DNA of 64,000 nt, taken from the NCBI GenBank assembly GCA_002255985.1, contig NKIR01000008.1, forward strand, positions 1-64,000. Reading direction: 5' to 3'. The stretch's first letter is position 1, and each line of letters starts with the position of its first letter. A program made the position numbers and the translations under genes. The stretch is from Sphingomonadaceae bacterium PASS1 (GTDB taxonomy: Bacteria > Pseudomonadota > Alphaproteobacteria > Sphingomonadales > Sphingomonadaceae). Positions 17,701-33,758 of the stretch are shown piece after piece. Under the pieces are notes generated by a model. That model did not search any database and was not told where the DNA came from. It saw only the letters and a list, made by a program, of their open reading frames with translations.

Positions 17701-20700
17701 TCGATGGAACTACGCAAAACGACGTCTTGCAGGGCTCTGCTGGTAGCGATTTGATTAATGGCATTTCTGGCAATGACACCATCAACGGCGGTGCAGGTAA
17801 TGATAGTCTTTACGGTGGGACCGGGAACGATAGGCTCGATGGCGGAATCGGCGATGACCTGATTGCTGGCGGTGATGGCGATGACACCCTCTTTTGGTCA
17901 GCCGGTTCAGATAGAATGCAAGGCGGCGCGGGCAATGATCTAATCGAGCTTCAAGAGGAAAGCACTCGCCTAGCGAACCTCACAATTGATACCGGATCTG
18001 GTGACGATCAATTCTATATTTATTATGCCTCGACCGCGGATATTGTTGCTAACTTATCAGAAGGCAACGATCGCTTCTTTCAATCTGGGGCTGCATTTAA
18101 GTCGCTGACTTTGACACTTGGAGATGGGCGAGACAGCGTTGCGCTTTCGAGCTTTGAGCCAACTAACGCGTTTCAGATCACTGACTTTCAGGTCGGCTCC
18201 CAAGGCGATGTGCTCCAGTTTCAGTTTATAAATATTGGCAACCTGGCTGGGTGGGACGGAACAAGTAACCCCTTTGGGGCGGCTGGCTATGTTCGCCTTC
18301 TTCAGTCAGGATCAGACACATTTGTTCAATTCGACCGTGATGGTGCTATTGGATCGGAGGCGTTTCAAACAATTGTAATACTCAAAAATGTTGTCGCAGC
18401 CGAACTTGATACGATGAACCTTGGTGGATTTAGCCACAGCTCCGAGACCTTAATCGGTATGACGATTGAAGGCAGTGACGCGGATGATCTTTTGAACGGA
18501 ACCGCAGCTGCCGAGACCATTTTTGGGGGTGGTGGAAACGACACAATAATAGGTGGCTTAGGAAACGACAGTATTTACGGCGGCGACGGTAACGATCTAA
18601 TCGAGAGCCGCGGACCAGGGTCTGACTTCATCGACGCGGGTGCGGGCGATGATACAATTATCTCAAACAGCGCCGGGTCTCACGTTTTGTTGGGTGGGAT
18701 TGGCAATGACTTTATAGGTATATCTGGAACTACCACTGAATTAGACATGATTTCGGCAGACGCAGGCGCTGGAAATGATCGTATAACGATCACCGGATTG
18801 GGTAAAGGTAATATTGACCTTAAATTGGGCGAAGGTGACGATCATGTTCGATACTCTGTGAGCCTATCTGTTGCAGCTACTGGAAATCGATCAATAAGTT
18901 TTGGTTTGGGTAAAGACATAATTGAGTATATTGCTACATTAAGGCCATCAAGTTTAAAAATTACGGACTTTGAAGTCGGTTTGGCGGGGGATAGAATAAA
19001 CCTTTCGCGAATTTCTATTTCCAGCTTTGTGGGCTGGGATGGTCTGTCGAATCCTTTTGCAGGCGGGTATTTGCGTTTATTACAAAGCGACACTGACACG
19101 CTGATCCAGATGGATCGAGATGGCGCAGGCGCATCATCCTCGTTTGAAACATTTATAACGCTCCAAAACGTAAACGCATTCGATCTTACCGCATACCATT
19201 TTGATGGTATGGATCCCAATGGAAGCAGCCCACTTGGTATCGTTGTCGATGGTACATCAGGCATTAGTCGTTTGTCAGGATCGTTAGGCCCGGATGTAAT
19301 CAAAGGCTTTGTGCGTAGCGAGCTCATTTACGGTAATGCCGGAAATGACACCATCGACGGTGGCGAGGGTAACGACTCGATTTTCGGCGGTGCTGGCGAC
19401 GATATGATTTATGGCGGTCTTGGGGACGATTTTCTTCAGGGAGAGGGCGGGAATGACATCGTTGACGGCGGCGAGGGTGAGGATTCCCTATATTGGTCCT
19501 CGGGCTCGGACGTATTGAGAGGTGGCTCTGGTAATGATTACATTTTGGCTTCCGCATCTCAGGCCATGGAAAGCGGCTTTATATTCGGCAATGACGGCGA
19601 TGATACATTAGAAATAACGATTGGCGGTACCAATCTTGTTGAAGCTGACATGGGTATGGGGGCTGATTTAGTAAGATACATTTATGGAACAAATGTTTCA
19701 CTAACACTTGGGGTTGGAAAGGATGTTATCGAATATAACCCCTTCAGCTTTCTGAGTTTAGCTGATTACTACAACAATAACTTTATAGTTAATGACTTTG
19801 CAGTGGGCACGAATGGAGATGTCATAGATTTCTCCAAACTTGCTTGGACCAGTTTCAATTGGAACGGCCTGACAAACCTGTTCTCCACTGGGCGGTATTT
19901 GCGGTTGGTGCAATCTGGGACCGATACCCTCGTTCAATTTGATCAGGATGGTTCGCTTGGTGCGCTTGATTTCGGTACTGTCATGACACTCAAAAGCGTT
20001 AATGCAGCGGATCTGGTTGCTGCCAATTTTGCTGGTTTTACACCGAGCGGCATAACCTACCTCGGTACAACAACTGCCGATCAGTATGAAGGAAGCAACC
20101 GTGATGACACCTTCAACGCTCTTGGTGGCGATGACACACTAACCGGTGGCGCAGGAAACGATCGCATCGACGGCGGAGAAGGTCTCGACACTGCAGTCTA
20201 TGACGGCTCGCGAGACGATTACACTGTCGCCACAAATCTCGATGGCAGCATTTCAGTCTCCGACAATCGAGCCAGCAGCACGAATGGTACCGATGCGCTA
20301 ATCGGTGTTGAACGAATTAATATTGGCGGCACATTGTATGCAGCAGATGGCAAACCGCTGATCACGTCGAATGGCGGTGTTGATGCCGCAGCTTTGAGCA
20401 TCGCCGAGAACGGCACCGCTGTGACCCGTGTGGTTGCAACATCGCTTAATGCCAACGCATCGCTAGTTTACGCGATTTCGGGTGGTGTGGATGCCGCGCT
20501 GTTCCAAATTGACCCTGCAACGGGTGAACTGAGCTTCCGGAACGCCCCAGATTTTGAGGTACCAGCAGATACAGGTACCAACAACATCTATGATGTTGAA
20601 GTACAGGTCAGCGACGGCACAAATTTCGATGTCCAGTCGATCGCGGTAAGCGTCACAAACATTAACGACGCACCTGTCGTTGCAAACGCAATAACGGACC

Positions 20701-23700
20701 AGTCTGTAGATGAAGACGCCGCTTGGGTGTATCGAGTTCCAGCAGGCACGTTCAGCGACGCCGATGGCGATACACTAATCTACAGTGCCACTTCGGGCGA
20801 TGGCTCTCCGATACCAACTTGGCTCAACTTTGATGCGACAACACGGACGTTCTCAGGCACACCGCCGCTGAACTTCAACGGCAACATTAGCCTGACCGTG
20901 ACAGCGTCTGACCCGAGCGGACTGCAAGCATCTGATACGTTCGTGCTGACCGTCAACCCTGTTGAAGATGAAGCAACCGGCACTCTTACCATTGCTGGAA
21001 CGGTGGCCGAAGGCGGCCTTGTTGGTGCGAACCTATCTGCAAATGATGTGGACGGTGCGATTACCAGTACAGCTTACCAGTGGGAGATCTCCAATGATGG
21101 CGTGAGCGGTTGGAGCAACCTGAGTGGTGCAACATCATCGAGCTACGCAATCGCGTCAGACCAAAGCCAGGTTGGCAAGTATCTGCGGGTGGTTGCAACC
21201 ACCACTGATGCACTTGGCGGGACCACCGCGTTCACAAGCGCGGCCACTGTGGCCATTGCCAACGTCAACGATGCCCCTGTTCTAGTCGCGCCAATCGCAG
21301 ATCAGTCTGCAACCGAAGATGCAGCATTCAGCTTTGTTGTGGCTACAGGCAGCTTGTTAAGCCTTGTTGTGCCTCCGAGCAGCTTTGCGGATGTGGACCC
21401 TGGCGATGTGCTGACCTTGAGCGCAACGCTGGCCAATGGCAGTCCTTTGCCTACGTGGCTTACCTTCAATGCGGCCACCGGCACCTTCAGCGGTACGCCG
21501 CTGCGCGGTGATGTCGGCGCTGTCTCGGTGCGGGTAACCGCAGCCGATGCTGGTGGGCTAAGTGTCAGCGATGACTTTAACCTGACCGTGGCACCAGAGA
21601 CCATTGCGCCAACTGCAACCATTACGGACAATGTTCCAGGCACTTCGATAGGGACGGTTCTTTATACGGTAACGTTTAGCGAGACCGTAACCGGCCTTGC
21701 TGCCAATGACTTTGCCGTAACCAATGGAACGGTAAGCTCTGTAACCGGAAGCGGCACAAGCTATGTGGTTGCGGTTGCACCTTCAGCTAATTTTGAAGGC
21801 ACGCTTGCACTGTCGCTTAATGCAGGCGCAGTGCTGGATAAGGCAGGCAACCAGAACGCTAGCGTTGCTGCTGCAGGACAAGCGGTTGATACCCGCAAGC
21901 CAGTGGTCACAACGATTACGCCTACTGCAGACAGCACAGGCGTTGCGGTAGCCACCAACATCACGCTGGCATACTCTGAAGCCATACGTGCTGGGACTGG
22001 GGTCATTGAACTGCGTACAGCTGCAGGGGCGCTCATTGAGAGCTTCAACGTTGCCACCAGCAACCGCCTGACCTTTGCAGGCAGCAGCCTTACCGTTGAT
22101 CCTACGGCTCTATTGAGCGGCGCAACGCAATACAGGCTGTCGGTTGCAGATGGCGCTGTGCTGGACGTTGCAGGCAATGCGGCGGTCGCATTGACCACCT
22201 ACACGTTCACAACGCTGAGTGCAGTCAACACTATCAACGGTACTGCTGCTGCCAATACGCTTAACGGTACAGCAGGCGATGATGCGATCTACGGCTTTGG
22301 CGGCAATGACACGCTCAATGGTAATGCTGGCAATGACCTTCTCGATGGCGGCACCGGTAATGACCGGATGACCGGCGGCGCAGGCGATGACATCTATGTG
22401 GTTGAAAGTGCCAATGATACTGTCACCGAGGCTGCCAATGGCGGCACTGATACAGTGCGTACCACCCGTGCGAGCTACACACTTGCCAACAATGTCGAGA
22501 ACCTGACCTATATTGGTGACGCAACCTTTAGTGGGACCGGCAATGCTGCAAACAACAGCATCACAGGCGGCATCGGTAATGACACGCTCGATGGCCGGGC
22601 TGGTAATGACATCATGACCGGCGGCCTTGGTAATGACCGCTATGTGGTCGACAGCTCAGGTGATGTGGTCGTGGAACAGTCCAGCGAGGGCAATGACATG
22701 GTCACAGCATCGATGAGCTATGTTCTGGGCGCCAATGTCGAGAACCTCACTCTGTCTGGCAATGCTGCGCTCAATGGGACCGGTAACGCAGTTGCCAACC
22801 AGATTACGGGTAACAGCGGGGCCAACATCTTGCGCGGTGCAGGCGGCGCTGACACGCTTAATGGTGCTGGCGGTACTGACACAGCTGCGTTCGATCAGGC
22901 GGCATCAAGCTATGCGCTTGATCATAGCGGCTCTGCGGTCATTGTCTCTGACCTTGTGAACGGTGAGGGCACCGACACGCTAACCGCGATTGAGAACCTG
23001 AACTTCGCAGGCTCAAATTATGCAATCGTCTCGGGCACGACTGCGGTCAACACGATCAACGGTGGTGCTGGATCGCAGGCAATCTTTGCGCTTGGTGGTA
23101 ATGACATCATCAATGGCGGGGCAGGCAATGACATCATTGTTGCAGGTCTTGGCAATGATGGCATTACGCTTGCGTCTGATACAGGTGGCCGTGACTTTAT
23201 CGACGGCGGTGCGGGCGAGGATACCTTTACCCTTGCCACAGCAACCGGCGCTGAAGCGTTCGTGATCTACACACGCACAGCAGCGCTCCAGGCGTTGAGT
23301 GGGCTTACGCTCAACCTCAACACCGAGATCGTGGTCACACGCAATGGTGTGGTCATTGCCGAACTCGATAATATAGAGGAGATCGTGGTAAGCTCGCTTC
23401 GGGTAACGTCACCTACAGGCGCCAATGGCGGCACGGTTGCAGGCGACACCATCCAGGTTGTGGGAGACTTCAACCAGACGAGCCTCAACTTCAACACCAT
23501 CACCATTGATGGGACGCAGGCCAATGACGTTGTGGACATCTCGGCGCTAGAATCCGCACACCGGATCGTGTTCACCTCCAATGGCGGACAAGACACGGTT
23601 GTAGGCGCGCTGCGTCCGCAGGACATCGTCAACATGGGTACAGGGCCAACGGCGGCTGTGGATCATGCTGCGCTTGCACCTATTGATACTGCTATGCCTG

Positions 23701-24422
23701 CAGTTGTGGCCACTCCAGTTGTACCCACATCATCAGCCGCGTTGCCAACGGACGATGTGGTACGCGGCACTGTGCAGCGCACAGTGGATGATAATCCGCA
23801 TGCCGATGACAACATCCATGTTGATGATAAGGGCGGACTGCGACCACAAGGCGTTAAGCGTTCAGACGATGTCCCAGGCGTTGATGATCATGGCCTGTCG
23901 CACGGCAAGAACGATGACGATGCGTCAAAGGGTCGTTCAAGCGATGACCATGGCGCACGGCATGGCCAAAAGACGCATGATGTCCTCAGCATTGATCCGA
24001 TACCAGGCAACACAGCCTCCGACAGGTATTACGGCAAAGACGGCGCTGACCTGTTCAAGTTCCGTGGCGGTGATACGATCCACGACTTCGACGATAGTGA
24101 CGACATCATCGACCTTCGCGGGCTTGGGGTATCACGTGATAACTTCAAGCAGATGGTATCGGTGTCGCAAGACAGCGCAGGCCTATCACTCAAGATCGGT
24201 GACGCCATCATGCGGGTCTTGGGCGAGGATGACCTGTCGCTAAGCGACTTCTTGTTTGACGCAGCAGGACCCGCAGTGGACGAACCTAAGCGGACCTCGG
24301 ACCTGCCAACAGACAGCAGGCGTTGGGATGATAATCCCAAGCATCATGGCATCGAGGACAACCTGAAGGTTGAGGACTTTATGGTCCCGCGCTGGACGGT
24401 CGATGCTGATCTGGTGATCTAA
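11724..24422 (+). CDS. Giant RTX/cadherin-like repeat protein, probable secreted adhesin
   Basis: A 4232-residue acidic protein with no Sec signal peptide. I count nine He_PIG-type Ig-like repeats (starting near residues 20, 217, 802, 902, 1002, 1693, 1893, 2987 and 3190). Three cadherin-like segments (SISGGADA near 733, 1627 and 2920) and three copies of a VEDEATG unit (112, 1790, 3082) follow the same mosaic. RTX blocks of GGxGNDxx nonapeptides bind calcium; five of them end in a segment containing GWDG and RLLQSGSDT that resembles the VC_A0849-type secretion-target domain. Two more Ig-like domains lie near 3295-3500, a further RTX block at about 3500-3800, and a His/Asp-rich stretch at about 4010-4090. 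A final short RTX-like segment precedes the C-terminus. This is the pattern of type I secreted adhesins, but no secretion genes are in the window. Confidence 0.85.
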   Translation: MVDSLIQNTSQVAGSPFVSEAIADQLAVEDTEWSHQVSANAFSDLEGDTLTYSATLGDGSPLPDWLNFDAATRTFLGTPPQNLNGDISLTVIASDGALTASDTFVLTINPVEDEATGSVAVNGTVAEGGTVSVDVNVTDVDGAITATSYQWQISADGVSGWTDLSGATLSSFAIASDQSQVGNYLRVVATTTDALGGTSAFTSGATVAIANVNDAPVLATAIFNQTAVEGIAWTYQLPANAFVDPDDNALTYGVTMQDGTPLPDWISFNAATRTLSGTAPINSLGSFNVVVTTSDGLASATDVFAINVSDVLGQLIDGTDLSETLTGTAGADVINGLGGSDIIYGRAGDDILNGGDQYDNLYGEGGNDILNSGSGGGYLDGGTGDDILNGGDGNDTLSSDAGSDVMRGGAGNDRIYSYGYGSGYITRQIEAGSGDDYVYINNGQSVNTSVDLGEGNDLIELNYYNNNSEMQITLGAGQDRVDLRVFNGALTFTDFMAGPQGDVLDWALLQSGQLFGWDGASNPFGQSGFMRLVQSGTDTLLQVDRDGSVVIPPAVPGMPGPISADFTTLAILKNVNAADLTAYNFGGFDPRTVTFLGSAADDQIIGSDRGDIIDSNAGNDSLTGGAANDALDGGTGIDIAYYSGAIGDYTITPNADGSIAVADVRVGSPDGTDTLRNVELLSFAGIAYSLDGNPLIISINGGDTASVSISENTTIVTKVVASQLNATAALTYSISGGADASLFQIDASTGDLTFKAAPNFEIPADADGNNIYDVEVQVSGASLTDRQSISVTVTNANDAPVVSTAIADQASIEDAEWSYQIPADTFSDFDSATLTYSTKLSNGSPLPASLIFDPTTLRFSGTPSLNFNGDLGITVTASDGIAAASDTFILQVNAVNDAPVVSAAIADQASLENEEWRFQLPANAFSDVDSNTLYYSALLDDGSTLPTWLTFDTATRTFSGTPPLDYLGTLNIAITASDGSAFVTDTFAISIIFNVNDAPVVSLPIPNRVALENAPWSYQVPAATFSDVDRDILTYTATLDNGSPLPAWLTFDPATRTFSGTPPLNSVGDISLKVIASDGALTSSDTFILAVTDVLGQLIDGTAGNDTLVGTAGADTINGFGGNDTINGNAGNDVIDGGAGSDTINGGSGDDTLSDSEGGAQLNGGDGNDIITGRNQVSMPTAGGILSANGGSGDDTIDFASVNGSVSGDAGNDVITLGGGYASGGDGSDVINMSGSGSVYGGEGNDTITSGSGDDYIDTGNGNDIVDSGAGNDIVYSGREYFSNSGSDTIRSGAGNDTIYSYKSIYGMPIFPGAPPVVTPNILIETGLGDDLIEYGNNGSASAVINLGEGNDRLQLRNTTSGGTQLTLGSGRDAIELYNVSIAAPLTITDFQAGPDGDSFNLSTLPTGQLFGWDGGTNPFGASGFMRLVQSGADTLLQIDRDGAANSIAPMPGMTTGFVTLAILQNVTASQLDASNFGGFAPRGITYLGSADADQFVGTTRDDVFTALAGNDTVTGAGGNDRIDGGEGIDTAVYNGSLGDYTVTTNADGSISVADNRAGNPNGSDTLVAVERINIGGTLYALDGKPLISSDGGGDTASVTVSENGTFVTTVTATDPDANTILSYSISGGADAALFDINAATGALTFKAAPNYEAPADLGGDNVYDVVVQVSDGTLTDTQAIVVTVTNAINDAQLLAAPIADQYVTEDAAWSYQVPAGTFSDPDGDALTYSANSGDGSPLPDWLEFDTATQTFSGTPPQDFNGNVSVKVTASDGSLTDSDTFVLTVSPVEDEATGSVVVNGTVAEGGTVGVDANATDIDGAIQDTTYQWQISADGVNGWTDLSGATSSSYATASDQSQVGKYLRVVATTTDALGGTTAFTSAATVAIANVNDAPVLAAVIFNQTAVEGIAWSYQLPFNAFTDPDGDALTYSVTMQDGTQLPGWISFNAATQTLSGTAPVSSTGNFSLKVTAFDGVTSESSAFTLSVSEVLGQSIDGTTQNDVLQGSAGSDLINGISGNDTINGGAGNDSLYGGTGNDRLDGGIGDDLIAGGDGDDTLFWSAGSDRMQGGAGNDLIELQEESTRLANLTIDTGSGDDQFYIYYASTADIVANLSEGNDRFFQSGAAFKSLTLTLGDGRDSVALSSFEPTNAFQITDFQVGSQGDVLQFQFINIGNLAGWDGTSNPFGAAGYVRLLQSGSDTFVQFDRDGAIGSEAFQTIVILKNVVAAELDTMNLGGFSHSSETLIGMTIEGSDADDLLNGTAAAETIFGGGGNDTIIGGLGNDSIYGGDGNDLIESRGPGSDFIDAGAGDDTIISNSAGSHVLLGGIGNDFIGISGTTTELDMISADAGAGNDRITITGLGKGNIDLKLGEGDDHVRYSVSLSVAATGNRSISFGLGKDIIEYIATLRPSSLKITDFEVGLAGDRINLSRISISSFVGWDGLSNPFAGGYLRLLQSDTDTLIQMDRDGAGASSSFETFITLQNVNAFDLTAYHFDGMDPNGSSPLGIVVDGTSGISRLSGSLGPDVIKGFVRSELIYGNAGNDTIDGGEGNDSIFGGAGDDMIYGGLGDDFLQGEGGNDIVDGGEGEDSLYWSSGSDVLRGGSGNDYILASASQAMESGFIFGNDGDDTLEITIGGTNLVEADMGMGADLVRYIYGTNVSLTLGVGKDVIEYNPFSFLSLADYYNNNFIVNDFAVGTNGDVIDFSKLAWTSFNWNGLTNLFSTGRYLRLVQSGTDTLVQFDQDGSLGALDFGTVMTLKSVNAADLVAANFAGFTPSGITYLGTTTADQYEGSNRDDTFNALGGDDTLTGGAGNDRIDGGEGLDTAVYDGSRDDYTVATNLDGSISVSDNRASSTNGTDALIGVERINIGGTLYAADGKPLITSNGGVDAAALSIAENGTAVTRVVATSLNANASLVYAISGGVDAALFQIDPATGELSFRNAPDFEVPADTGTNNIYDVEVQVSDGTNFDVQSIAVSVTNINDAPVVANAITDQSVDEDAAWVYRVPAGTFSDADGDTLIYSATSGDGSPIPTWLNFDATTRTFSGTPPLNFNGNISLTVTASDPSGLQASDTFVLTVNPVEDEATGTLTIAGTVAEGGLVGANLSANDVDGAITSTAYQWEISNDGVSGWSNLSGATSSSYAIASDQSQVGKYLRVVATTTDALGGTTAFTSAATVAIANVNDAPVLVAPIADQSATEDAAFSFVVATGSLLSLVVPPSSFADVDPGDVLTLSATLANGSPLPTWLTFNAATGTFSGTPLRGDVGAVSVRVTAADAGGLSVSDDFNLTVAPETIAPTATITDNVPGTSIGTVLYTVTFSETVTGLAANDFAVTNGTVSSVTGSGTSYVVAVAPSANFEGTLALSLNAGAVLDKAGNQNASVAAAGQAVDTRKPVVTTITPTADSTGVAVATNITLAYSEAIRAGTGVIELRTAAGALIESFNVATSNRLTFAGSSLTVDPTALLSGATQYRLSVADGAVLDVAGNAAVALTTYTFTTLSAVNTINGTAAANTLNGTAGDDAIYGFGGNDTLNGNAGNDLLDGGTGNDRMTGGAGDDIYVVESANDTVTEAANGGTDTVRTTRASYTLANNVENLTYIGDATFSGTGNAANNSITGGIGNDTLDGRAGNDIMTGGLGNDRYVVDSSGDVVVEQSSEGNDMVTASMSYVLGANVENLTLSGNAALNGTGNAVANQITGNSGANILRGAGGADTLNGAGGTDTAAFDQAASSYALDHSGSAVIVSDLVNGEGTDTLTAIENLNFAGSNYAIVSGTTAVNTINGGAGSQAIFALGGNDIINGGAGNDIIVAGLGNDGITLASDTGGRDFIDGGAGEDTFTLATATGAEAFVIYTRTAALQALSGLTLNLNTEIVVTRNGVVIAELDNIEEIVVSSLRVTSPTGANGGTVAGDTIQVVGDFNQTSLNFNTITIDGTQANDVVDISALESAHRIVFTSNGGQDTVVGALRPQDIVNMGTGPTAAVDHAALAPIDTAMPAVVATPVVPTSSAALPTDDVVRGTVQRTVDDNPHADDNIHVDDKGGLRPQGVKRSDDVPGVDDHGLSHGKNDDDASKGRSSDDHGARHGQKTHDVLSIDPIPGNTASDRYYGKDGADLFKFRGGDTIHDFDDSDDIIDLRGLGVSRDNFKQMVSVSQDSAGLSLKIGDAIMRVLGEDDLSLSDFLFDAAGPAVDEPKRTSDLPTDSRRWDDNPKHHGIEDNLKVEDFMVPRWTVDADLVI
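11777..12660 (+). repeat. Long internal direct repeat, copy 1 (second copy at about 16810-17690)
   Basis: This stretch and 16810-17690 encode the same order of units: a He_PIG repeat, the VEDEATGS unit, and a He_PIG repeat beginning IFNQTAVEGIAW. They share long runs of near-identical bases, for example around GATGAGGCAACCGGCAGCGT. Both are followed by an RTX block beginning LGQ-IDGT. The similarity at base level points to a recent segmental duplication or ongoing recombination inside the gene. Boundaries are approximate. Confidence 0.7.
16810..17690 (+). repeat. Long internal direct repeat, copy 2 (see 11777-12660)
   Basis: Second copy of the He_PIG / VEDEATGS / He_PIG segment of the giant gene, about 5 kb downstream of the first. 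A third, more diverged set of units starts near 20680. Recombination between copies 1 and 2 would delete about 5 kb, a multiple of three if the copies are in register, giving a shorter in-frame protein. Confidence 0.65.
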
Positions 24423-24533
24423 TGAGATAGAGGCGCGAGGTGGGTTTAAACTGCTTTGCGCCTCTTGGGTTTCTCACGATGTGGCGTGGTTCGATCAAGC
24501 AATCTCGAGGCCATGATACTTAACTGGGTGGCA
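24273..24533 (+). repeat. Duplicated 3' end of the giant gene, copy A (copy B at 26424-26683)
   Basis: 261 bases covering the last 49 codons of the adhesin gene and about 110 bases beyond the stop. Copy B lies 2.15 kb downstream. Over the coding part, 44 of 49 encoded residues are the same. The shared non-coding part includes a potential stem (24429-24436 with 24458-24465, AGAGGCGC and GCGCCTCT) and a degenerate small-lipoprotein-like sequence. See copy B for the truncated stump. Confidence 0.85.
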
Positions 24534-24665: not shown

Positions 24666-24799
24666 CTTGCTAGCGTAACTGATGACTTCGAAATTACACC
24701 ATACCATGCTGCGTATGCTCAACTTTATCGTGAGCTTGAGGCGACTGCCGCCGTTATCCGAACTTTCGGGTGACGAGGAGCGTATGCTGTTTGAACTTA

Positions 24800-25637
24800 G
24801 GGTCAGGACTCATTGATCACAACCAGAAGATGACGGTAGCGGCGATGCAGATGGCCGACATGAAGGTGTGTGCGCATCGATCGTAGCGTGTGTGGATGCG
24901 GCGCCAATCCTTGATTTTAGCGAACAGGTTTTCGACCATATGGCGTTTTTTGTAGACCGCTTTGTCATAGTGATATTGCACTTTGCGGTTGGATTTTGGC
25001 GGGATGCAGGGGGTTATCCCGCGCGCTGTCAGGGCGGCGCGGAGCCAGTCGCTGTCATAACCTTTGTCGCCCAGCAGTTCCTTAGCATTTGGTAGCGCGT
25101 CAAGCAGCAGATAAGCGCCCTTGTGATCGCTCATCTGACCTTCGGTGAGCATAGGGCGCCCCTCGCCATCGCAGACCGCGTGCAGCTTTGAGTTCAGCCC
25201 GCCTTTGGTGCGCCCGATACATCTGGAAAGAGCCCCCCTTTTAAGAGGCTTGCCGCAGTTCTGTGAGCTTTGAGGTGCGTCGCGTCAATCATGATCCGGT
25301 CTGGCTCTCCAGCCTCGCCCGCCAGTTCGGCGAAGATACGGTTGAAGACGCCCAGACGGCTCCAGCGAATGAAGCGATTATAAATCGTCTTGTGCGGCCC
25401 GTAGCTGCGCGGCGCATCGCGCCAGCGCAGGCCGTTCTTGATCACGAAGATGATGGCCGACACAATCAGCCGGTCATCAACGCGCGGAACTCCGTGCGAT
25501 AGCGGGAAAAATGGCTTGATCCGGCGCATCTGCGCCTGACTCAGCAAATAGGGGTAATCCATCAACAGCGCCTCCTTGACGCCGCCATTGAATCAATCAG
25601 TCAACTATTATGCAAGCATTTTAACGGGTCCTGACCC
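24800..25637 (-). mobile_element. IS5-family (IS427-like group) insertion sequence, 838 bp
   Basis: The terminal repeats begin GGGTCAGGACTC on the left and GGGTCAGGACCC on the complement of the right end. TA flanks both sides (24798-24799 and 25638-25639). Almost the same size as the element at 4750-5586 but with clearly different ends and transposase, so it is an independent arrival of a related IS. Its transposase reads on the minus strand, opposite to the gene it interrupts. A decayed relative lies at 56506-56776. Confidence 0.9.
24817..25565 (-). CDS. IS5-family DDE transposase made by -1 frameshifting
   Basis: The first frame (25565 down to 25194; an ATG one codon in, MDYPYLLSQ, is also possible) carries the N-terminal region PRVDDRLIVSAIIFV and the first aspartate in IMIDATHLKAHRT. 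The second frame ends at 24817 and has the second aspartate in LLGDKGYDSDWLR and the glutamate in HMVENLFAKIKDWRRIHTR. A -1 slip on AAAAGGGGGG (complement of 25233-25242) joins them through LSRCIGRTKGGLNSKL, the conserved segment of the family. All catalytic residues are present, so it may be functional. Confidence 0.85.
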
Positions 25638-25849
25638 TAGAGTGCTCTGGGAAAAGCAAGGCTCAATTTCGGTTGCCGACGCTTATAGCTTGGGCGTCAA
25701 CCAATCTGACTCAACGTCATATCGCCAGCTTATTGCACTCAAAAACAAGGGTTTGTTACAAATCTCGGTAGCGGCAGACGATAAGCGTCGACGGGATGTG
25801 AGCTTTACTAAAACTGCAGAAGATTTGTTCTCGATCATCGATTGATATA

Positions 25850-26398
25850 ATGCGAGCTTCACTTCTGCATGACGCTTTAATCAGCGCCGCATTAGCGGTG
25901 CTGTATATTGCCCTCTACTACCTCTCTGGCTGGATGGTCGGGAATGAGGCTGTGGGTGGTATTGCCAGTATCATGTTCTTACCAGCGTTTGTCCGATTGC
26001 TGGGCTTCCTGCTTGTTGGATATTGGGTAGTCCCAGCCTTATTCGTGGCAGGTCTATTTTGCGTCGACCTTGGGCTTGGGATTGAAAGCAAAGTTGTTGT
26101 GTCAGCCGCCATCGCAATCGGCGGACCACTTGGCGTTTTCCTAGCCAGCCGTTTAATTGGATTAAAACCAAGCCTTTCAAATCTCACACCTATTCGCCTA
26201 CTTTTACTCTCGGCAAGCTGTTCGTTGGGCAACTCAACCACATATCACTTCTCCCTAGAGGCTTTGGGGATAGCCGATCATAGCTCTTTAGGGCACTTGT
26301 ATGTTTTCTTCGGCGATATGATTGGGACTTGGTTCATTATGTATTTAATCAAGTTGGCAACGGAGTTTGCTTTAACGACCTACAGGCGTGCGCCCTGA
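25850..26398 (+). CDS. Multi-pass membrane protein of a duplicated HTH/membrane module, copy 1
   Basis: 182 residues with about five or six membrane segments (near residues 11-32, 38-58, 60-78, 82-103, 112-130 and 148-172). It is clearly homologous to the 185-residue protein at 30505-31062: FLPAF-RLLG-LL-G-W, then DLGL, and a TYH motif. The glycine/proline pattern and the GD..G segment near residue 153 remind me of MASE1-type sensory membrane domains, but the match is by eye and weak. It begins four bases after the stop of the interrupted regulator, so with the IS upstream its transcription may be lost. A likely role is sensing or transport tied to the regulator; substrate unknown. Confidence 0.7.
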   Translation: MRASLLHDALISAALAVLYIALYYLSGWMVGNEAVGGIASIMFLPAFVRLLGFLLVGYWVVPALFVAGLFCVDLGLGIESKVVVSAAIAIGGPLGVFLASRLIGLKPSLSNLTPIRLLLLSASCSLGNSTTYHFSLEALGIADHSSLGHLYVFFGDMIGTWFIMYLIKLATEFALTTYRRAP

Positions 26399-26423
26399 TA
26401 TTCTCCTCGATTGATAAGGGCAG

Positions 26424-26573
26424 GCAGTGGACGAGCCTAAGCGGACATCTGGCCTGCCAACAGACAGCCGGCGTTGGGATGATAATCCCAAGCACCATGG
26501 CATTGACGATAGCTTGAAGGTTGAGGAGTTCATGGTCCCACGCTGGACGGCCGATGCTGATCTGGTGATTTAA
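26424..26573 (+). pseudogene. Truncated copy of the adhesin C-terminus (49 codons), copy B
   Basis: An open stretch ending in TAA that encodes the last 49 residues of the giant protein with five changes (D-G, E-D, N-S, D-E, V-A relative to copy A). It starts abruptly 25 bases after the stop of the membrane-protein gene, with no start codon or ribosome site. Most changes are conservative, which suggests the copy came from a functional second adhesin gene or was duplicated not long ago. The homology continues to 26683 past the stop, including the stem at 26580-26587/26609-26616. Confidence 0.8.
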
Positions 26574-26683
26574 TCACATAGAGGCGCGAGGGGGGTGGAA
26601 CCTGCTTTGCGCCTCTTGGGTTGCTCACGATGTGGCGGGGCACCATCAGACAACGCCGAGGCTATAATACTTAACTGGGTGGC
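26424..26683 (+). repeat. Duplicated 3' end of the giant gene, copy B (copy A at 24273-24533)
   Basis: 260 bases matching copy A in order and spacing, including 110 bases beyond the stop codon. Copies A and B are direct repeats that bracket the interrupted regulator and its membrane-protein gene. That arrangement would allow excision or amplification of the 2.15-kb unit by recombination. Confidence 0.85.
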
Positions 26684-26705
26684 AAATGGGGCAGCTCAGA
26701 TGCCC
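26590..26705 (+). pseudogene. Degenerate small lipoprotein-like sequence, copy 2
   Basis: In the frame PALRLLGCSRCGGAPSDN this copy keeps the PSDNAEA segment that is also in the intact ORF at 28277 (PSDNADA), followed by I-LNWVA. It lacks a start codon. It lies at the same distance after the adhesin stump as copy 1 after the full adhesin gene. Confidence 0.5.
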
Positions 26706-27525
26706 CACTACCGTTGGTAATGACCACAAGACTAAGCATTCTTAACGATCCAGTGGGAATTGCAAATTTAGATGCGAACCTCGCACAGCGATCATATTTG
26801 TCGCACATTTTTAGCGTTATCCGGCGCCATCTTAGGGGCTTTAGGGGGCATAAGATGACGCCGGATGCCAATTCGTTATCGGCGGCGTTTTATGGGGTAT
26901 GCGGGGCTAGCGGCCCAACCACCATATTCCGGCAAGACAACGATTGAAGTTAAAGTGGGATAATTGCCGGCCAAGCCGCGAGAGCCGGCAGCGTGTGGGC
27001 TATCGCAATCCTGACGTGGATTTGAACTGGCCTTGCCACTGGTGTTACTTTCTCGGCTACTGGTTGAGTATATGGAAATATCTGATTATTTTATTTCGCC
27101 AGATATGACATAACATCAACTTAAATTGGTGCCATAACGCTCGGATTAACGACACTGTCCGCAAACTTAGTGTTCAAGAAATGCTCCATATTCCTCTATT
27201 GCGTGGCCTTGCAGGATTATCGGGGGGTGAGTAATTGCACCATATGTGAAATGATTTATTTTGCGATGATGATTAGATATAGGTAATCCGCACGTTGGAG
27301 GCGGGGGAATCATTCTCCTTTTTTGGCTTGTGGCTCGGCGGCGGGTGCAGAAAGTGCGACAACAATGATAGCCATTAAGCTGTCATATTTGCGGCGCGGG
27401 GCCGACCGTTTCCCAATACGGCGATGCCCATACAGGGCATTTTTAGAGGGAAAATGCTATCATGGCTTATCTCAACTTCCGCATGTTGTTGGTCACATCC
27501 GCCCAAGCCAACGGACATCTGAGTT
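26706..27525. other. 820-base gap without a supported gene
   Basis: Short ORFs occur on both strands (for example a 77-codon one at 26714-26947) but none resembles a known family or has a ribosome site. The region contains the strong inverted repeat at 26819-26866 and, towards its right end, the presumed promoter of the response regulator. AT-rich around 27060-27130. Confidence 0.5.
26819..26866. repeat. Inverted repeat with 16-base arms
   Basis: ATCCGGCGCCATCTTA (26819-26834) faces TAAGATGACGCCGGAT (26851-26866), 15 of 16 positions pairing, with a 16-base loop rich in G. No T run follows in either direction, so it is not a standard terminator. It might be a regulatory RNA structure, a protein-binding site or the core of a small palindromic element. 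Confidence 0.6.
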
Positions 27526-28218
27526 GTGAACGGTAAGATGTTCCCATCTGACATTTGTATCGTTGATGACGACTCAGATTTTGTTTCGTTTTTAGCGGAC
27601 TATCTGCGGTTGCGCGGGTCCCGCTGCAGCACCTTTACGTCAGCCGAAGAATTGATCCGTGGTGGCAGCCTGGAAGATTATGACTTCATCATTCTCGATC
27701 TGGGCCTGCCCGGCATCGACGGCGTCGAACTGGCGGCCCTGATCCGTGGCTCTAGCAACGCAGGTATGTTAGTTGTCAGTGGGCGGCTCGGACCGGACGC
27801 CTTTAACTCCGCATTGGCCGCGGGGGCAGACATGTTCATCAATAAGCCCGTCCGGTTTGATCAGGTCACCCACGCCATACAGTCTATTTGGAGGCGATAT
27901 AGAGAGCCGCGCGCGCGGCTTACACGGTGGTCGGTTACAGAGGATATGGGGACGCTAATATCCCCCTTGGGGCACGGGGTGGCCTTGAGCGCCATCGAGG
28001 GGCGGCTGCTGGAGAAATTGCTTCAGAATAAAGGCGAGGTTACGTCGCGTGCGGACCTCTGTCAGGCCGCCGGCATTTCAGGAAAAGGCGATCACCGCAA
28101 TCTTGACGCAGCATTTTTTCGTTTGCGAAGGAAAATCGAGCGCGAGGCGGGATGCCCTTCGCCATTTCGCACGGTGCATGGCATTGGATATCAATTGTCC
28201 GAGGATATTGACGGCTGA
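27526..28218 (+). CDS. OmpR/PhoB-family response regulator, orphan
   Basis: 230 residues. The receiver domain (about 5-120) has the acidic pair in CIVDDDSD, the phospho-accepting aspartate in FIILDLGLPG (about residue 57) and the conserved lysine in MFINKPVRF. The winged-helix DNA-binding domain (about 135-228) ends with FRTVHGIGYQL, as is typical. The listed start is GTG; an ATG at 27538 (MFPSDICIVDD) is equally plausible, and neither has a strong ribosome site. No histidine kinase is nearby, so its partner must lie elsewhere. Its position between the adhesin and polysaccharide genes suggests it controls surface traits, but that is inference. Confidence 0.88.
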   Translation: MNGKMFPSDICIVDDDSDFVSFLADYLRLRGSRCSTFTSAEELIRGGSLEDYDFIILDLGLPGIDGVELAALIRGSSNAGMLVVSGRLGPDAFNSALAAGADMFINKPVRFDQVTHAIQSIWRRYREPRARLTRWSVTEDMGTLISPLGHGVALSAIEGRLLEKLLQNKGEVTSRADLCQAAGISGKGDHRNLDAAFFRLRRKIEREAGCPSPFRTVHGIGYQLSEDIDG

Positions 28219-28276
28219 AGACACGCTCTCAACGTCTCATTCCACTGGCAGCAACGGACCCGTATCCAGTTCGTAA

Positions 28277-28435
28277 ATGAAACCCCTGACAGGTAAATTA
28301 TTTGGCGGGAAGTTGCTTACTGCGGCTTTGCTTCTCTCGGGTTTTTCAACTTGCGGCGTGGGGCCATCCGACAATGCCGATGCTGTCATTCGTAACTGCA
28401 TGGCAGCGGCCGATCAGCCAGTCACTTTACCCTGA
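28277..28435 (+). CDS. Small putative lipoprotein (52 residues)
   Basis: Starts MKPLTGKLFGGKLLTAALLLSGF and continues with STCG, a short basic N-region, a hydrophobic core and a cysteine near residue 28. It resembles a bacterial lipoprotein signal, although FSTC is not a perfect lipobox. The mature part would be only about 25 residues. It lies 58 bases after the response-regulator stop on the same strand. Two decayed copies of the same sequence follow the adhesin gene and its duplicated tail. Either a real small secreted protein or the N-terminal stump of a longer lost gene. Confidence 0.45.
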   Translation: MKPLTGKLFGGKLLTAALLLSGFSTCGVGPSDNADAVIRNCMAAADQPVTLP

Positions 28436-28800
28436 AGAGGCTCGTCGACATTTGGGGATGGCAGAGGATCCTGATTGGCATCCTGACCTGTATGATCCGC
28501 AATGAGAAGTGGGCCATCATTTTGGTCTGAATTATCGGCATCCGATTGAGGCAGGGATGGGACCCACGTCCAATCCGGATTGGACGGAAGCCTCACGCCA
28601 TCCTTGCTTTGCCTCATTGTCGAATAGTCAGTGACCTTAAACTCGCGCCACCCATTGTGGTCACGAATAAGTCCGAATTGGCAAATCTTACAATTTGATC
28701 GCCAGTTCATCTCATCATGCCAGTGACGCTTTCGGTCTGGCCGGTGGCGAACCACTTTGCATATAATTGCAAGGGGATGATGCATGTTGTGACTATCCAT
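28414..28800 (-). CDS. Hypothetical protein, 128 residues
   Basis: Not recognised. The sequence has a pair of cysteines (NCKICQFGL) and several His and Trp residues in the first half (HRPDRKRHWHDEMNW), then GWREFKVTDYSTMRQ and an acidic, proline-rich tail. The composition looks protein-like rather than random, but no clear ribosome site precedes the ATG at 28800. It overlaps the end of the small ORF at 28277-28435 on the opposite strand by 22 bases. It could be a small metal-binding protein; function unknown. Confidence 0.35.
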   Translation of the reverse strand: MDSHNMHHPLAIICKVVRHRPDRKRHWHDEMNWRSNCKICQFGLIRDHNGWREFKVTDYSTMRQSKDGVRLPSNPDWTWVPSLPQSDADNSDQNDGPLLIADHTGQDANQDPLPSPNVDEPLQGKVTG

Positions 28801-29264
28801 AGCAAGAAGAGCGACTCAATTATATCATATCTGAAACTTATCTTGCTTATTATAAGCATTTTGTAACCATGTTTTTCAGGGAAATGCGATTTAATCGGTA
28901 GTTTTTCACTCGTCTATGAATAGGTTTTGGATACCTTAAATTCCATAAACGCAGAAATCCTAAAGCGATATAAATTGACGATTTTATACAATGAGTACAT
29001 CGGATGTATCAGAATCTATTACACACAGTTGCCTGGAAGAATTCACGGAGAGTTGGATTGCAGCGGTAGAGCTATCCCTTTGCGGAACCGATATTTCAGA
29101 AATTATGTTTCCGTGATTTCAAAATAATTTCAATAGATAAGACCCTTGGCTCTCGATACCGCGACGAGCGTTGATCAACCGTAACCAAGCCGGCGATATT
29201 TTATGGATAACCACCCAATAGTTGCGTTCACTGTGGGTGTAGTGTCCGCACATGCGAGCGACTG
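28801..29264. other. 464-base AT-rich gap
   Basis: No convincing gene; a 66-codon ORF at 28927-29127 has no support. It contains a 21-base sequence at 28971-28991 that recurs with one change at 33208-33228 in another AT-rich gap. The right part should hold the promoter of the gene at 29265. Confidence 0.5.
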
Positions 29265-29612
29265 ATGCCTCATAAAGCGGCCTCCTCGAATGACAACGAA
29301 CTACCTACCGGCGAGGGCGGTAGTTTCGCACATATCATCCCGCTGCTGTTGGGCCTCAGGCAGGATTTATCCAAGAACGCCTCTGCAAGCTTTCTTAAGG
29401 CGTGGAACCCCGACGGTAGTCAGATTGAGTTAGTTGACCTTGTCATCGAACAGCTAACAGCCACAGAGACAGTGGACCCCGCGGGCCTCTCCGAAGAATT
29501 AGCTCATGCCCTGATGGACCCAGCGATTTCCGATTTATTGCCTGAGGCCGATGCCTTGCAAATTGTGGGCATGCTCAACAAGGTAAAGGCGACAGGCTCT
29601 TCCTCATGGTAA
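29265..29612 (+). CDS. Hypothetical protein, 115 residues
   Basis: Not recognised. A mainly helical, slightly acidic soluble protein: HIIPLLLGLRQDLS near residue 24, then IELVDLVIEQLT and SEELAHALMDPAISDLLPEADALQIV. There is no signal peptide, membrane segment or known motif. The start is an ATG after GAGCGACTG, a weak ribosome site. Codon use is like that of the neighbouring real genes, which favours a true gene. It sits alone between two gaps, upstream of the second HTH/membrane module. Confidence 0.5.
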   Translation: MPHKAASSNDNELPTGEGGSFAHIIPLLLGLRQDLSKNASASFLKAWNPDGSQIELVDLVIEQLTATETVDPAGLSEELAHALMDPAISDLLPEADALQIVGMLNKVKATGSSSW

Positions 29613-30063
29613 CGCTCCAGTTCCATTCACTTTTGCGGCAAAACAAGGCCAGCGTTGGTGCCAAATGAGACTGCATATGATTGGCTTGCCTCATTAACCT
29701 TTCCGAAGATTTTCGTTGCTTTGAGCGCACGGGCACGCTCAGGCCCTTTTGCAATTCTCCAGCCGTTCGGCATCTTGACGCTCTAAATACAACATGCCAG
29801 TCACGCCCACTGAGGCTCAAACGTTCTGCAGACGCCTGCTCCGCATGCATTTGCAAGTTTGAAGGCAGTGCTCGGGATGAAAATAAAGCCACAACGAAAG
29901 CCCCACGGCCGCCGGCGGCTGCGGCATAAACTTCAACTTTCGTGGGGATCCTTGCGCACGCAAAGAGGCGCGTGCCACGGCTAGGTTTATTGACAATGTA
30001 ACCCCTCATAACATGTAACGCTAAACAGATAGATTTCTAAAATCGTTTTTGGTAGGAAATTGT
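29613..30063. other. 451-base gap before the second HTH/membrane module
   Basis: ORFs on both strands here (for example 29681-29929) overlap one another and show no family match or ribosome site, so I see no gene. The last 60 bases are AT-rich and likely carry the promoter of the regulator at 30064. Confidence 0.45.
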
Positions 30064-30378
30064 ATGGAATCGTCATCCGCAATCAAACTCATCAACTTCA
30101 TGGTGTCGCTGCGCCGGCTTCCACCCCTCTCCGAATTGACGGGCGAGGAGGAGCGCCTCCTGTTTGAACTGTACGAAATTTGGGAGCGTAGCGGTGAAAT
30201 ATCTGTCTCCGACGTCTACGGCCTCGGGCGCGGTAAGTCGGCGTCGACGGCCTACCGGACCTTCATTAGCCTGAAGGATAAGGGCATGGTCGATGTGTCC
30301 GTCGACGATAACGACAAACGAAAACGCGAGGTGTCCTTCACCAACCTTGCGCGGCAACTGTTTGCGGCAATGGGCTGA
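30064..30378 (+). CDS. Small winged-helix-like regulator of the duplicated HTH/membrane module, copy 2
   Basis: 104 residues (MESSSAIKLINF) starting at an ATG with AGGAAAT upstream; the longer GTG/TTG starts are less likely. It is the intact paralog of the gene interrupted at 24682-25845. Predicted order: two N-terminal helices (IKLINFMVSLRRL, GEEERLLFELYEIWE), an HTH (EISVSDVYGLG then SASTAYRTFISLKDKGM) and a beta wing (SVDDNDKRKREVSFT). That matches the MarR/PadR type of DNA-binding protein. The membrane-protein gene follows after 126 bases, not four as in copy 1. It probably regulates its own locus or nearby surface genes; this is inference. Confidence 0.7.
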   Translation: MESSSAIKLINFMVSLRRLPPLSELTGEEERLLFELYEIWERSGEISVSDVYGLGRGKSASTAYRTFISLKDKGMVDVSVDDNDKRKREVSFTNLARQLFAAMG

Positions 30379-30504
30379 CTTTCGGCGCGCCATTAAATCG
30401 CTTAAATTAAATGCATTTTTGCCGTAGAAAATGCCCTTAAATGCCTTTCTAAGGCAATAAATCGTTAGCTTTCATCGCCGAACTCATTTAACATATGAAA
30501 TAAT
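30379..30504. promoter_or_regulatory. Spacer with a small hairpin between the module genes
   Basis: TGCCTT (30442-30447) pairs with AAGGCA (30451-30456). The stretch also has repeated AATGC motifs and is AT-rich, so a separate promoter for the membrane-protein gene is possible here. In copy 1 of the module this spacer is only four bases. Confidence 0.35.
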
Positions 30505-31062
30505 ATGGAAGATGAGAAGATTAGCTACCGGGCCGTCGCAGTTACCGGCACATTTCTAACAATTGTTTATCTCCTGCTGTACCAATTAAACGCCAGCATA
30601 ATCGGCACTTTTGAGACAAATGGCATTGCAGTCCTGGTCTTTCTGCCTGCATTTGCGCGCCTGCTAGGCTATTTGCTTATCGGACTTTGGGCGGCCCCAT
30701 TCCTATTTCTGGGCGCGGTCCTCAGTCTCGACTTAGGGCTGGACCTGAGGGACCAGATCACTGTCGCGGCGCTAGTTGAGGTGGGGGCACCCGCGGCCCT
30801 CATGCTTATTCAAAAGGCGCGATTGGACCGGCCTCCCCTTAGGTATCTGACGGGAAGGCAGCTCTTAGTTTTGTCTTCGGTTGCCGCGCTAGGGAGCGCA
30901 ATCACATACCACATTGGCCTCGCGCTGGCGGGGCTTGAGGTGTATTCTGTGCAGTCGTTTGCGACAACCGTGTTCGGGAATGCGGCAGGGGCGTGGGCCG
31001 TGATGTACGCCGCTAAGATTGTGATGACGGTAATGGGGAAAGCCTGGTCGGCCCTGCGGTGA
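30505..31062 (+). CDS. Multi-pass membrane protein of the duplicated HTH/membrane module, copy 2
   Basis: 185 residues, about six membrane segments, homologous to the protein at 25850-26398 over its whole length. Conserved positions include FLPAFARLLGYLLIGLW near residue 47, DLGLDL near 76, ITYHIGLAL near 131, and a C-terminal GNAAGAWAVMY helix. The N-terminus has a few more charged residues (MEDEKISYR) than copy 1. The fold may be MASE1-like, but I cannot name a family with confidence. A membrane sensor working with the upstream DNA-binding protein, or a small transporter, would both fit. Confidence 0.7.
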   Translation: MEDEKISYRAVAVTGTFLTIVYLLLYQLNASIIGTFETNGIAVLVFLPAFARLLGYLLIGLWAAPFLFLGAVLSLDLGLDLRDQITVAALVEVGAPAALMLIQKARLDRPPLRYLTGRQLLVLSSVAALGSAITYHIGLALAGLEVYSVQSFATTVFGNAAGAWAVMYAAKIVMTVMGKAWSALR

Positions 31063-33428: not shown

Positions 33429-33758
33429 ATGACAACCGAATGCCGTGACGGTCACTGCGCAGTTTTAAAAGATACGATGCGCCTTGCAGGCAAGCCGCAG
33501 ACAAATCCAAAATTATCGCTGCTCTCGGCGGAGGGCAAAATACTCTCGGCAATCGCGCGGGACGAGAAGCTTATTATGAAAGACATCCCGCACATCACTG
33601 GGATTTCATTTCGTTCTTGCTTCGACTGTGTGCGTAAATTGACAGATCTGGGCATAATTGAGAAGGCCAAGGACCCCGACGACGGGCGTTCGGTCGTCCT
33701 GAAGCTGAACCACGAGAAATTATGTGAAATGCTGTGCGGCGGCCGCGGATCAGTCTAG
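33429..33758 (+). CDS. MarR-like winged-helix protein
   Basis: 109 residues. The core reads SLLSAEGKILSAIARDEKL, then MKDIPHITGISFRSCFDCVRKLTDLGIIEK (HTH with recognition helix) and AKDPDDGRSVVLKL (wing). That is the standard MarR order, but the dimerising helices at both ends are short, so the protein is smaller than most MarR members (about 140 residues). It starts at an ATG preceded by GGCGGGGAATTC. Unlike the two module regulators it has no adjoining membrane gene. It faces the antiterminator gene across a palindrome-bearing gap and may control it. Confidence 0.65.
   Translation: MTTECRDGHCAVLKDTMRLAGKPQTNPKLSLLSAEGKILSAIARDEKLIMKDIPHITGISFRSCFDCVRKLTDLGIIEKAKDPDDGRSVVLKLNHEKLCEMLCGGRGSV

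What the first reader, a model, noticed from the sequence alone, without database searches (positions are those of the whole stretch)
24682..31062. A duplicated two-gene module: small winged-helix protein plus multi-pass membrane protein
Two loci 5 kb apart carry the same pair in the same order: 24682-25845 with 25850-26398, and 30064-30378 with 30505-31062. Both proteins of each pair are clearly paralogous by eye over their full lengths. I do not recognise the pair as a described system. The membrane partner loosely resembles a MASE1-type sensor domain without an output domain, so the DNA-binding partner might be the output, recruited by contact rather than phosphorylation. The surrounding genes all concern the cell surface. 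The pairing is seen; the signalling role is inference.
Basis: partly seen in the sequence, partly recalled or inferred. Interest (0 to 1): 0.7.

Follow-up and report, generated by a model that had tools for sequence, protein, structure and literature searches.

The report
Membrane sensor paired with DNA-binding partner
This is a recurrent, apparently undescribed bacterial gene pair, a small membrane protein resembling a vitamin-binding receptor and a small DNA-binding protein, that probably lets a membrane signal switch genes without the usual phosphate relay.

Summary
The pairing is real, but one of the window's two regulators is broken: an IS5-family element (24800-25637) splits the first. 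The copies are old paralogues (membrane proteins 37% identical over 155 aa), not a recent local duplication.

Stand-alone relatives of the membrane protein have the same winged-helix gene beside them at 36 of 40 places across Pseudomonadota, in three arrangements: regulator first (20), divergent (13), membrane gene first (3). No other neighbour recurs in more than 3 of 32 loci. All 8 plasmid records (of 72,556) matching the membrane gene carry the regulator within about 340 bases. MASE1 domains of other, mostly long proteins lack it (0 of 30 loci).

Best reading: the membrane protein senses a ligand or partner and controls a winged-helix regulator made by the next gene. It would work like HAAS-PadR dyads but with different parts. 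Pairing and homology are shown; sensing, contact and targets are inferred. A repressor of a small membrane transporter is the main rival.

The parts
30064..30378 (+). Copy 2 winged-helix regulator, 104 aa, intact
   Evidence: AlphaFold model pLDDT 87.6 with H2-18, H27-43, H48-51, H60-72, E76-80, E88-92, H94-103
30505..31062 (+). Copy 2 membrane protein, 185 aa, half-MASE1 / S-component-like fold, intact
25850..26398 (+). Copy 1 membrane protein, 182 aa, intact frame
24682..24799 (+). Copy 1 regulator, 5' piece, cut off by the IS
   Evidence: Translation; aligned; 46.5 bits
24800..25637 (-). IS5-family insertion sequence inside the copy 1 regulator; the one full-length copy found in this genome
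25642..25845 (+). Copy 1 regulator, 3' piece (most of the winged helix)
   Evidence: 71.4 bits
24266..24533 (+). First copy of a 268-nt direct repeat: 3' end of the giant adhesin gene plus downstream DNA
   Evidence: 231 of 268 identical
26417..26684 (+). Second copy of that repeat (adhesin tail remnant), downstream of copy 1
11724..24422 (+). Giant RTX/cadherin-like adhesin gene immediately upstream of copy 1 (context, not part of the pair)
   Evidence: a relative 77% identical over 1011 aa, with RTX and cadherin-like Pfam matches, lies upstream of subfamily II pairs in congener G001, with one ORF between

Best explanation
A two-gene transmembrane regulatory module. The membrane protein (about 185 aa, five long helices, no soluble domain) is the sensory half. 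It has the core of a MASE1 domain and an ECF S-component-like predicted fold, a fold whose known members capture a small molecule in the membrane. The output is not fused to it but made by the adjacent gene, a minimal (104-aa) MarR-like winged-helix protein with no receiver or separate ligand-binding domain. The likely mechanism is that ligand or partner occupancy of the membrane protein changes its contact with the winged-helix protein, releasing it from the membrane or reshaping it. That would change transcription of the module's own promoter and of nearby targets, in this strain probably exopolysaccharide and adhesin genes. Shown: pairing, sequence homology, predicted folds, lack of kinase or receiver domains. 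Inferred: ligand, direct contact, DNA targets, direction of control.
For: Pairing at 36 of 40 stand-alone membrane genes in three gene orders. Seeded from the regulator, 16 of 18 places above 60 bits are paired, and 9 of 9 in named genome contigs. Membrane and regulator distances correlate, r 0.75 over 36 pairs and 0.85 over 20 alphaproteobacterial pairs, above all 5000 permutations. No third gene recurs in more than 3 of 32 loci. MASE1 homology. S-component-like predicted fold. MASE1 domains elsewhere, nearly all in long proteins, lack this regulator nearby (0 of 30 loci). No EcfT subunit found in the window's genome. HAAS-PadR pairs are a published precedent for a membrane-linked protein plus separate winged helix (PMC11237479, passages).
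Against: No direct evidence of contact, and no fusion protein was seen among the places found. Pairing and co-divergence are equally expected if the regulator simply controls the membrane gene. 4 of 40 membrane genes lack the regulator; orphan regulators exist (G461, G404:C32; a Robbsia plasmid record has the regulator but no membrane match). The module is sporadic: stand-alone membrane genes in 12 of 397 family genomes. No shared operator was found. The window's own two membrane proteins have no Pfam MASE1 match. The fold match rests on a predicted model, and Foldseek alone finds nothing at E 0.001 or below.
Confidence: 0.52

Rival explanations
1. Regulator and target: the winged-helix protein is a local repressor whose main target is the membrane gene, and the membrane protein is a small solitary transporter or binding protein (like a lone S-component) rather than a sensor.
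For: S-component-like predicted fold. Divergent arrangement with 94-172 nt between the matched regions at 12 loci fits local control. The regulator resembles MarR-type regulators such as SlyA. Strict two-gene module.
Against: The sequence relatives of the membrane protein are MASE1 sensory domains, not transporters. No EcfT found in the window's genome. The same pairing in three gene orders and across far-diverged sequences seems tighter than usual for a regulator and its target (inference, not measured).
Confidence: 0.3
2. A dedicated exopolysaccharide/adhesin regulator: the pair is an accessory of surface-polysaccharide loci, whatever its mechanism.
For: Window: polysaccharide genes on both sides (WecA-like and RfaH-like, both below their NCBIfam cut-offs; Wzy_C, Wzc-type, flippase-like) and the adhesin. 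L115, L118, L119 and L121 lie among Poly_export, Wzc-type, Wzy_C or sugar-nucleotide genes. The Polaromonas pair is followed by CsgG. In congener G001 subfamily II pairs lie downstream of a 77% identical adhesin.
Against: No polysaccharide genes were evident at 6 of 11 distinct subfamily I loci (L113, L114, L116, L117, L120, L026; two on short contigs), nor at most subfamily II and phylum-sample chromosomal loci (read mostly by eye). The adhesin association among congeners is weak (2 of 16).
Confidence: 0.12
3. A toxin-antitoxin or defence-type pair: a membrane toxin with its repressor.
For: Sporadic distribution, some plasmid carriage, local multi-copy clusters (window, G001, G396).
Against: No PADLOC match for the four membrane proteins scanned, only weak CARF/Csa3-type hits for the regulator's helix-turn-helix. 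No match for one Burkholderiales member in phage records. MASE1 homology. Copy 1's membrane frame persists next to a broken regulator.
Confidence: 0.03
4. Decayed MASE1 sensors: the membrane protein is a truncated relic of a longer sensor and the neighbour is incidental.
For: It covers only the first half of MASE1; some copies are damaged (window copy 1, G469, G253). A truly broken MASE1 beside a transposase-like gene does occur (G925, L157).
Against: In some searches stand-alone proteins score 65-228 bits and the MASE1 sensors 37 or less; the one stand-alone found at sensor level is G680 (22 bits), judged by its 203-aa frame. Conserved motifs and a constant partner.
Confidence: 0.03

Closest known systems
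HAAS-PadR-like wHTH dyads (PMC11237479; passages read)
   Same: Two genes: a membrane-linked signalling protein plus a stand-alone winged-helix regulator, proposed there as an alternative to two-component systems, with a conformational change passed on by contact.
   Different: Different parts: no HAAS/DUF1700-type Pfam match in 19 members and no PadR Pfam match for the regulators scanned. The sensor is MASE1/S-component-like. Found here in Pseudomonadota.
MASE1 (Pfam PF05231) sensory domain, as in DgcE of E. coli (PMC6510439; passages read)
   Same: Homologous membrane core sharing the (W)xFLPAxxR and GDxxG stretches. MASE1 of DgcE is a signal-input domain that a protein partner (RdcA) interacts with directly.
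   Different: Half length (about 165 of 299 positions), no fused output domain, partner is a DNA-binding protein.
ECF-transporter S-components (thiamin, riboflavin, folate, biotin and other types)
   Different: Sequence identity 8-16% in those rows; no EcfT subunit found in the window's genome; paired with a regulator instead of a transport module.
MarR/SlyA-type winged-helix regulators
   Same: Recognition-helix and wing region align (SlyA, E 1.5e-6); the model is a winged helix.
   Different: 104 aa in the window against about 138-200 aa for most MarR chains listed; its own conserved N-terminal LRxLPPLxxL stretch; no Pfam match above cut-off in the members scanned.

Membership tests
MASE1 (PF05231) | Sequence match to the Pfam model | tested here: inconclusive
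   Window copies: no MASE1 match. Of 19 members, 6 match at E up to 1; one, L037 (G133), is above the cut-off (38.7 bits against 29.8, positions 4-173 of 299). Profile-profile 98.3%, E 2.3e-14.
MASE1 (PF05231) | Full-length domain of about 300 residues (8-10 membrane segments) | tested here: not met
   Aligns to template positions 21-189 of 310; model has five long helices.
MASE1 (PF05231) | N-terminal to a fused signalling output (kinase, GGDEF, EAL, PAS) | tested here: not met
   The window proteins end after the last membrane helix; stand-alone open frames of 153-295 aa.
ECF S-component | S-component fold | tested here: met
ECF S-component | EcfT partner in the genome | tested here: not met
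   PF02361: 0 matches in G000 (96% complete); the control search matched 10 of 14 genomes.
ECF S-component | Substrate binding or transport | not testable with these tools
   Needs a biochemical assay.
HAAS-PadR dyad | HAAS (DUF1700/1048/1129) domain | tested here: not met
   No such Pfam match in 19 members at E up to 1.
HAAS-PadR dyad | PadR-family regulator | tested here: not met
   No PadR Pfam match. In the PDB the best hits are MarR/SlyA (1.5e-6); one PadR-like chain, 9h9y, at E 0.046.
MarR family | MarR winged helix | tested here: inconclusive
   Winged helix modelled; SlyA region matched at 1.5e-6; no Pfam MarR match above cut-off for the regulators scanned.
Two-component system | Histidine kinase and receiver domains | tested here: not met
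   Neither protein has them. An unrelated OmpR-type regulator lies at 27526-28218.

The most novel reading that the evidence does not exclude
MASE1-type domains are S-component-fold receptors that bind a small molecule in the membrane. In this two-gene system such a receptor directly controls a dedicated winged-helix regulator made as a separate protein, giving a phosphorylation-free transmembrane signalling system spread across Pseudomonadota and independent of HAAS-PadR.
Probability: 0.38. Interest if true: 0.8.

Novelty: new variant of a known kind. Interest (0 to 1): 0.62.

Why it matters
If the membrane protein controls the regulator by contact, bacteria have a second, independent design for passing a membrane signal to DNA without phosphate transfer. 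The predicted fold also suggests what MASE1 domains are. These domains sit on c-di-GMP enzymes and kinases, and their molecular role is described as long enigmatic (PMC6510439, passages): S-component-like receptors would be a testable answer, and the stand-alone pair is a minimal system in which to test it. It would also link two protein families that annotation barely reaches: of the members scanned, one membrane protein (L037) passes a Pfam cut-off and no regulator does.

Tried and rejected
Operator search: inverted repeats upstream of or between the genes in 37 regions, plus two alignments. A perfect 24-bp palindrome in G934 is partly kept in G1014 and G1088; its core occurs 8, 14, 6 and 4 times in four genomes against 2, 2, 4 and 7 for the reversed control. 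A few other regions also beat most shuffles (G118, G258, G975, Cupriavidus and others), but G118/G258 look like a terminator and no repeat was seen to be shared across the family. Not used.

Mobile-element idea: one Burkholderiales member has no match in 50,697 phage records and 8 matches in 72,556 plasmid records (subfamily II L034 finds 7; the window's own protein none). Viral contigs were not searched.

Solved structures by sequence: the membrane profile meets mainly TAL-effector repeats with no significant stretch (composition artefact).

Left out of the pairing count: G539 (L124, 33.6 bits, sensor-range score, frame runs to the contig end, no regulator nearby); G925 (L157, 162-aa remnant of a MASE1 next to a transposase-like frame, no regulator); G212 (N-terminus of a 931-aa MASE1 kinase); G699 and G760 (frames with stops); G880 (long frame). 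Counting G539 and G925 would give 36 of 42. Conversely G680 was kept at 22 bits for its 203-aa frame; its regulator is very diverged, and the adjacency was seen by eye before both proteins entered the profiles.

Control set: 30 loci, 28 distinct places, 2 or more kb held except L111 (1.8 kb); one of them is the G925 remnant.

Literature: searches for MASE1 with 'winged helix' (0 papers), MASE1 with MarR (2, neither evidently about this pair by listing), and two broader ones found no description of the pair. 'MASE1 domain' gave 22 papers, 15 listed; passages of two were read. The MASE1/ECF search listed only 8 of 54 papers, none holding MASE1, so a published MASE1/S-component link is not excluded.

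Full report
WHAT IS IN THE WINDOW. Copy 2 is intact: a 104-aa regulator (30064-30378) and a 185-aa membrane protein (30505-31062) on the same strand, 126 nt apart. Copy 1 keeps an intact membrane frame (25850-26398), but its regulator is cut by an 838-bp IS5-family element at 24800-25637 with two minus-strand transposase frames. This is the one full-length copy found in this genome. Copy 1 also sits between two 268-nt repeats of the 3' end of the giant adhesin gene 11724-24422 (231 of 268 identical).

THE COPIES ARE OLD. The membrane proteins are 37% identical over 155 aa. Copy 1 is 65% and 60% identical to relatives in Altererythrobacter (L113, L114), and copy 2 is no more than 37% identical to the ten proteins compared. 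The tree groups copy 1 with L113 and L114 and puts copy 2 on a separate deep branch. The AU test does not reject the two as sisters (p 0.178; 0.146 with the regulator included), so an old local duplication stays possible and a recent one does not. Copies of one subfamily lying within about 8 kb recur in G001 (pairs II about 4 kb apart, regulators identical) and G396.

THE PAIR IS REAL. Searches with the membrane protein found stand-alone relatives at 18 places in 12 of 397 family genomes, the window's own three included (a 19th match, G212, is a long MASE1 kinase), 2 more in relatives, 2 in a class sample of 289, 10 further ones in a phylum sample of 398, and 8 plasmid records of 72,556. The regulator lies beside the membrane gene at 16 of 18, 2 of 2, 2 of 2, 8 of 10 and 8 of 8, in all 36 of 40. 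Two of the 36 regulators are damaged (window copy 1; G469, split between frames). The four exceptions are L026, L028 (truncated membrane gene), L162 and L164. Two doubtful short frames without a regulator, G539 and G925, were left out (one search shows G925 to be a broken MASE1); with them it is 36 of 42. Gene order varies: regulator first at 20, divergent at 13, membrane gene first at 3. Control: 30 loci (28 distinct places) of MASE1 matches elsewhere, 29 of them in frames of about 500 aa or more and one a broken remnant, show no such regulator even at E 10 in the 1.8-3.5 kb held. Among 383 ORFs in 32 loci, only the membrane family (27 loci) and the regulator family (22 loci) recur in more than 3. 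The distances of the two proteins correlate (r 0.75 over 36 pairs; 0.85 over 20 alphaproteobacterial pairs; highest of 5000 permutations 0.25 and 0.48). Shared ancestry of the hosts contributes to this correlation, so it shows travelling together, not contact.

The regulator has no Pfam match above cut-off in the members scanned. Its profile meets SlyA/MarR chains in the recognition-helix and wing region (1.5e-6), and its model is a compact winged helix with one N-terminal helix and a short C-terminal helix (pLDDT 87.6). It has no receiver or separate ligand-binding domain. The LRxLPPLxxL stretch before the winged helix is strongly conserved in subfamily I and recognisable beyond it and is a candidate partner surface (inference).

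CONTEXT. The window is a polysaccharide locus: WecA-like and RfaH-like genes, Wzy_C, Wzc-type, aminotransferase, glycosyltransferase, flippase-like and UDP-sugar dehydrogenase genes. Of 11 distinct subfamily I loci, 5 lie in such surroundings: the window, L115 (same synteny as G001's by eye), L118, L119 and L121. At L113, L114, L116, L117, L120 and L026 none was evident by eye. In congener G001, two subfamily II pairs lie downstream of an adhesin 77% identical over 1011 aa to the window's, so pairs of different subfamilies sit by the same adhesin. The adhesin was found in 2 of 16 congeners searched (G001, G044), both of which carry a subfamily I pair; G030 and G008 carry a pair without it. Many subfamily II and phylum-sample chromosomal loci show no surface genes by eye. 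I therefore do not claim that surface control defines the family.

MECHANISM. MASE1 sensors keep sensor and output in one chain; here the sensor core stands alone and the constant neighbour is a bare DNA-binding protein. The simplest reading is sensor and output in trans. HAAS-PadR dyads show such an arrangement has been proposed elsewhere (PMC11237479, passages), and MASE1 of DgcE interacts directly with a protein partner (PMC6510439, passages). The S-component-like fold adds the idea that a small ligand bound in the membrane is the signal. The main rival keeps every observation but makes the membrane protein the regulated product, for instance a solitary transporter. I put the sensor reading at 0.52 and the rival at 0.30.

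COPY 1. Its membrane protein may be without its own regulator, or may work with copy 2's; this cannot be told from sequence.

Noticed in passing
window 24266-24533 and 26417-26684: Direct repeat of the adhesin's last codons and downstream DNA on both sides of copy 1, suggesting past recombination or loss of a second adhesin gene.
   Followed up: partly
window 27526-28218: OmpR-type response regulator (GTG start) between the two pairs; no kinase gene was noticed next to it.
   Followed up: no
window 33429-33758: Another small MarR-like regulator beside the RfaH-like gene, apparently not in this regulator family (22% identity).
   Followed up: partly
L038 (G000:C19) 1591-2220: Diverged stretches related to the copy 1 IS lie just upstream of the genome's third pair as well.
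   Followed up: no
L029 5807-10741: Two subfamily II pairs in G001 with identical regulators and 92% identical membrane proteins, about 4 kb apart with phage-like genes (by eye) between, downstream of the adhesin.
   Followed up: partly
L090 7391-7750; L091 2432-2875: Orphan regulators of this family without a membrane partner, at one conserved site next to what look like rplM and rpsI.
   Followed up: partly
L165 4864-4887: Perfect 24-bp palindrome in the divergent gap of G934, possibly an operator; only partly kept in relatives.
   Followed up: partly
L109, L142, L151: In MASE1-CHASE proteins the Pfam MASE1 match stops near model position 167-202, so half-length MASE1 units also exist inside long sensors.
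   Followed up: partly
L157 1387-1875: A MASE1 remnant of 162 aa in G925 next to a transposase-like frame: a broken sensor, not a member of the pair.
   Followed up: partly
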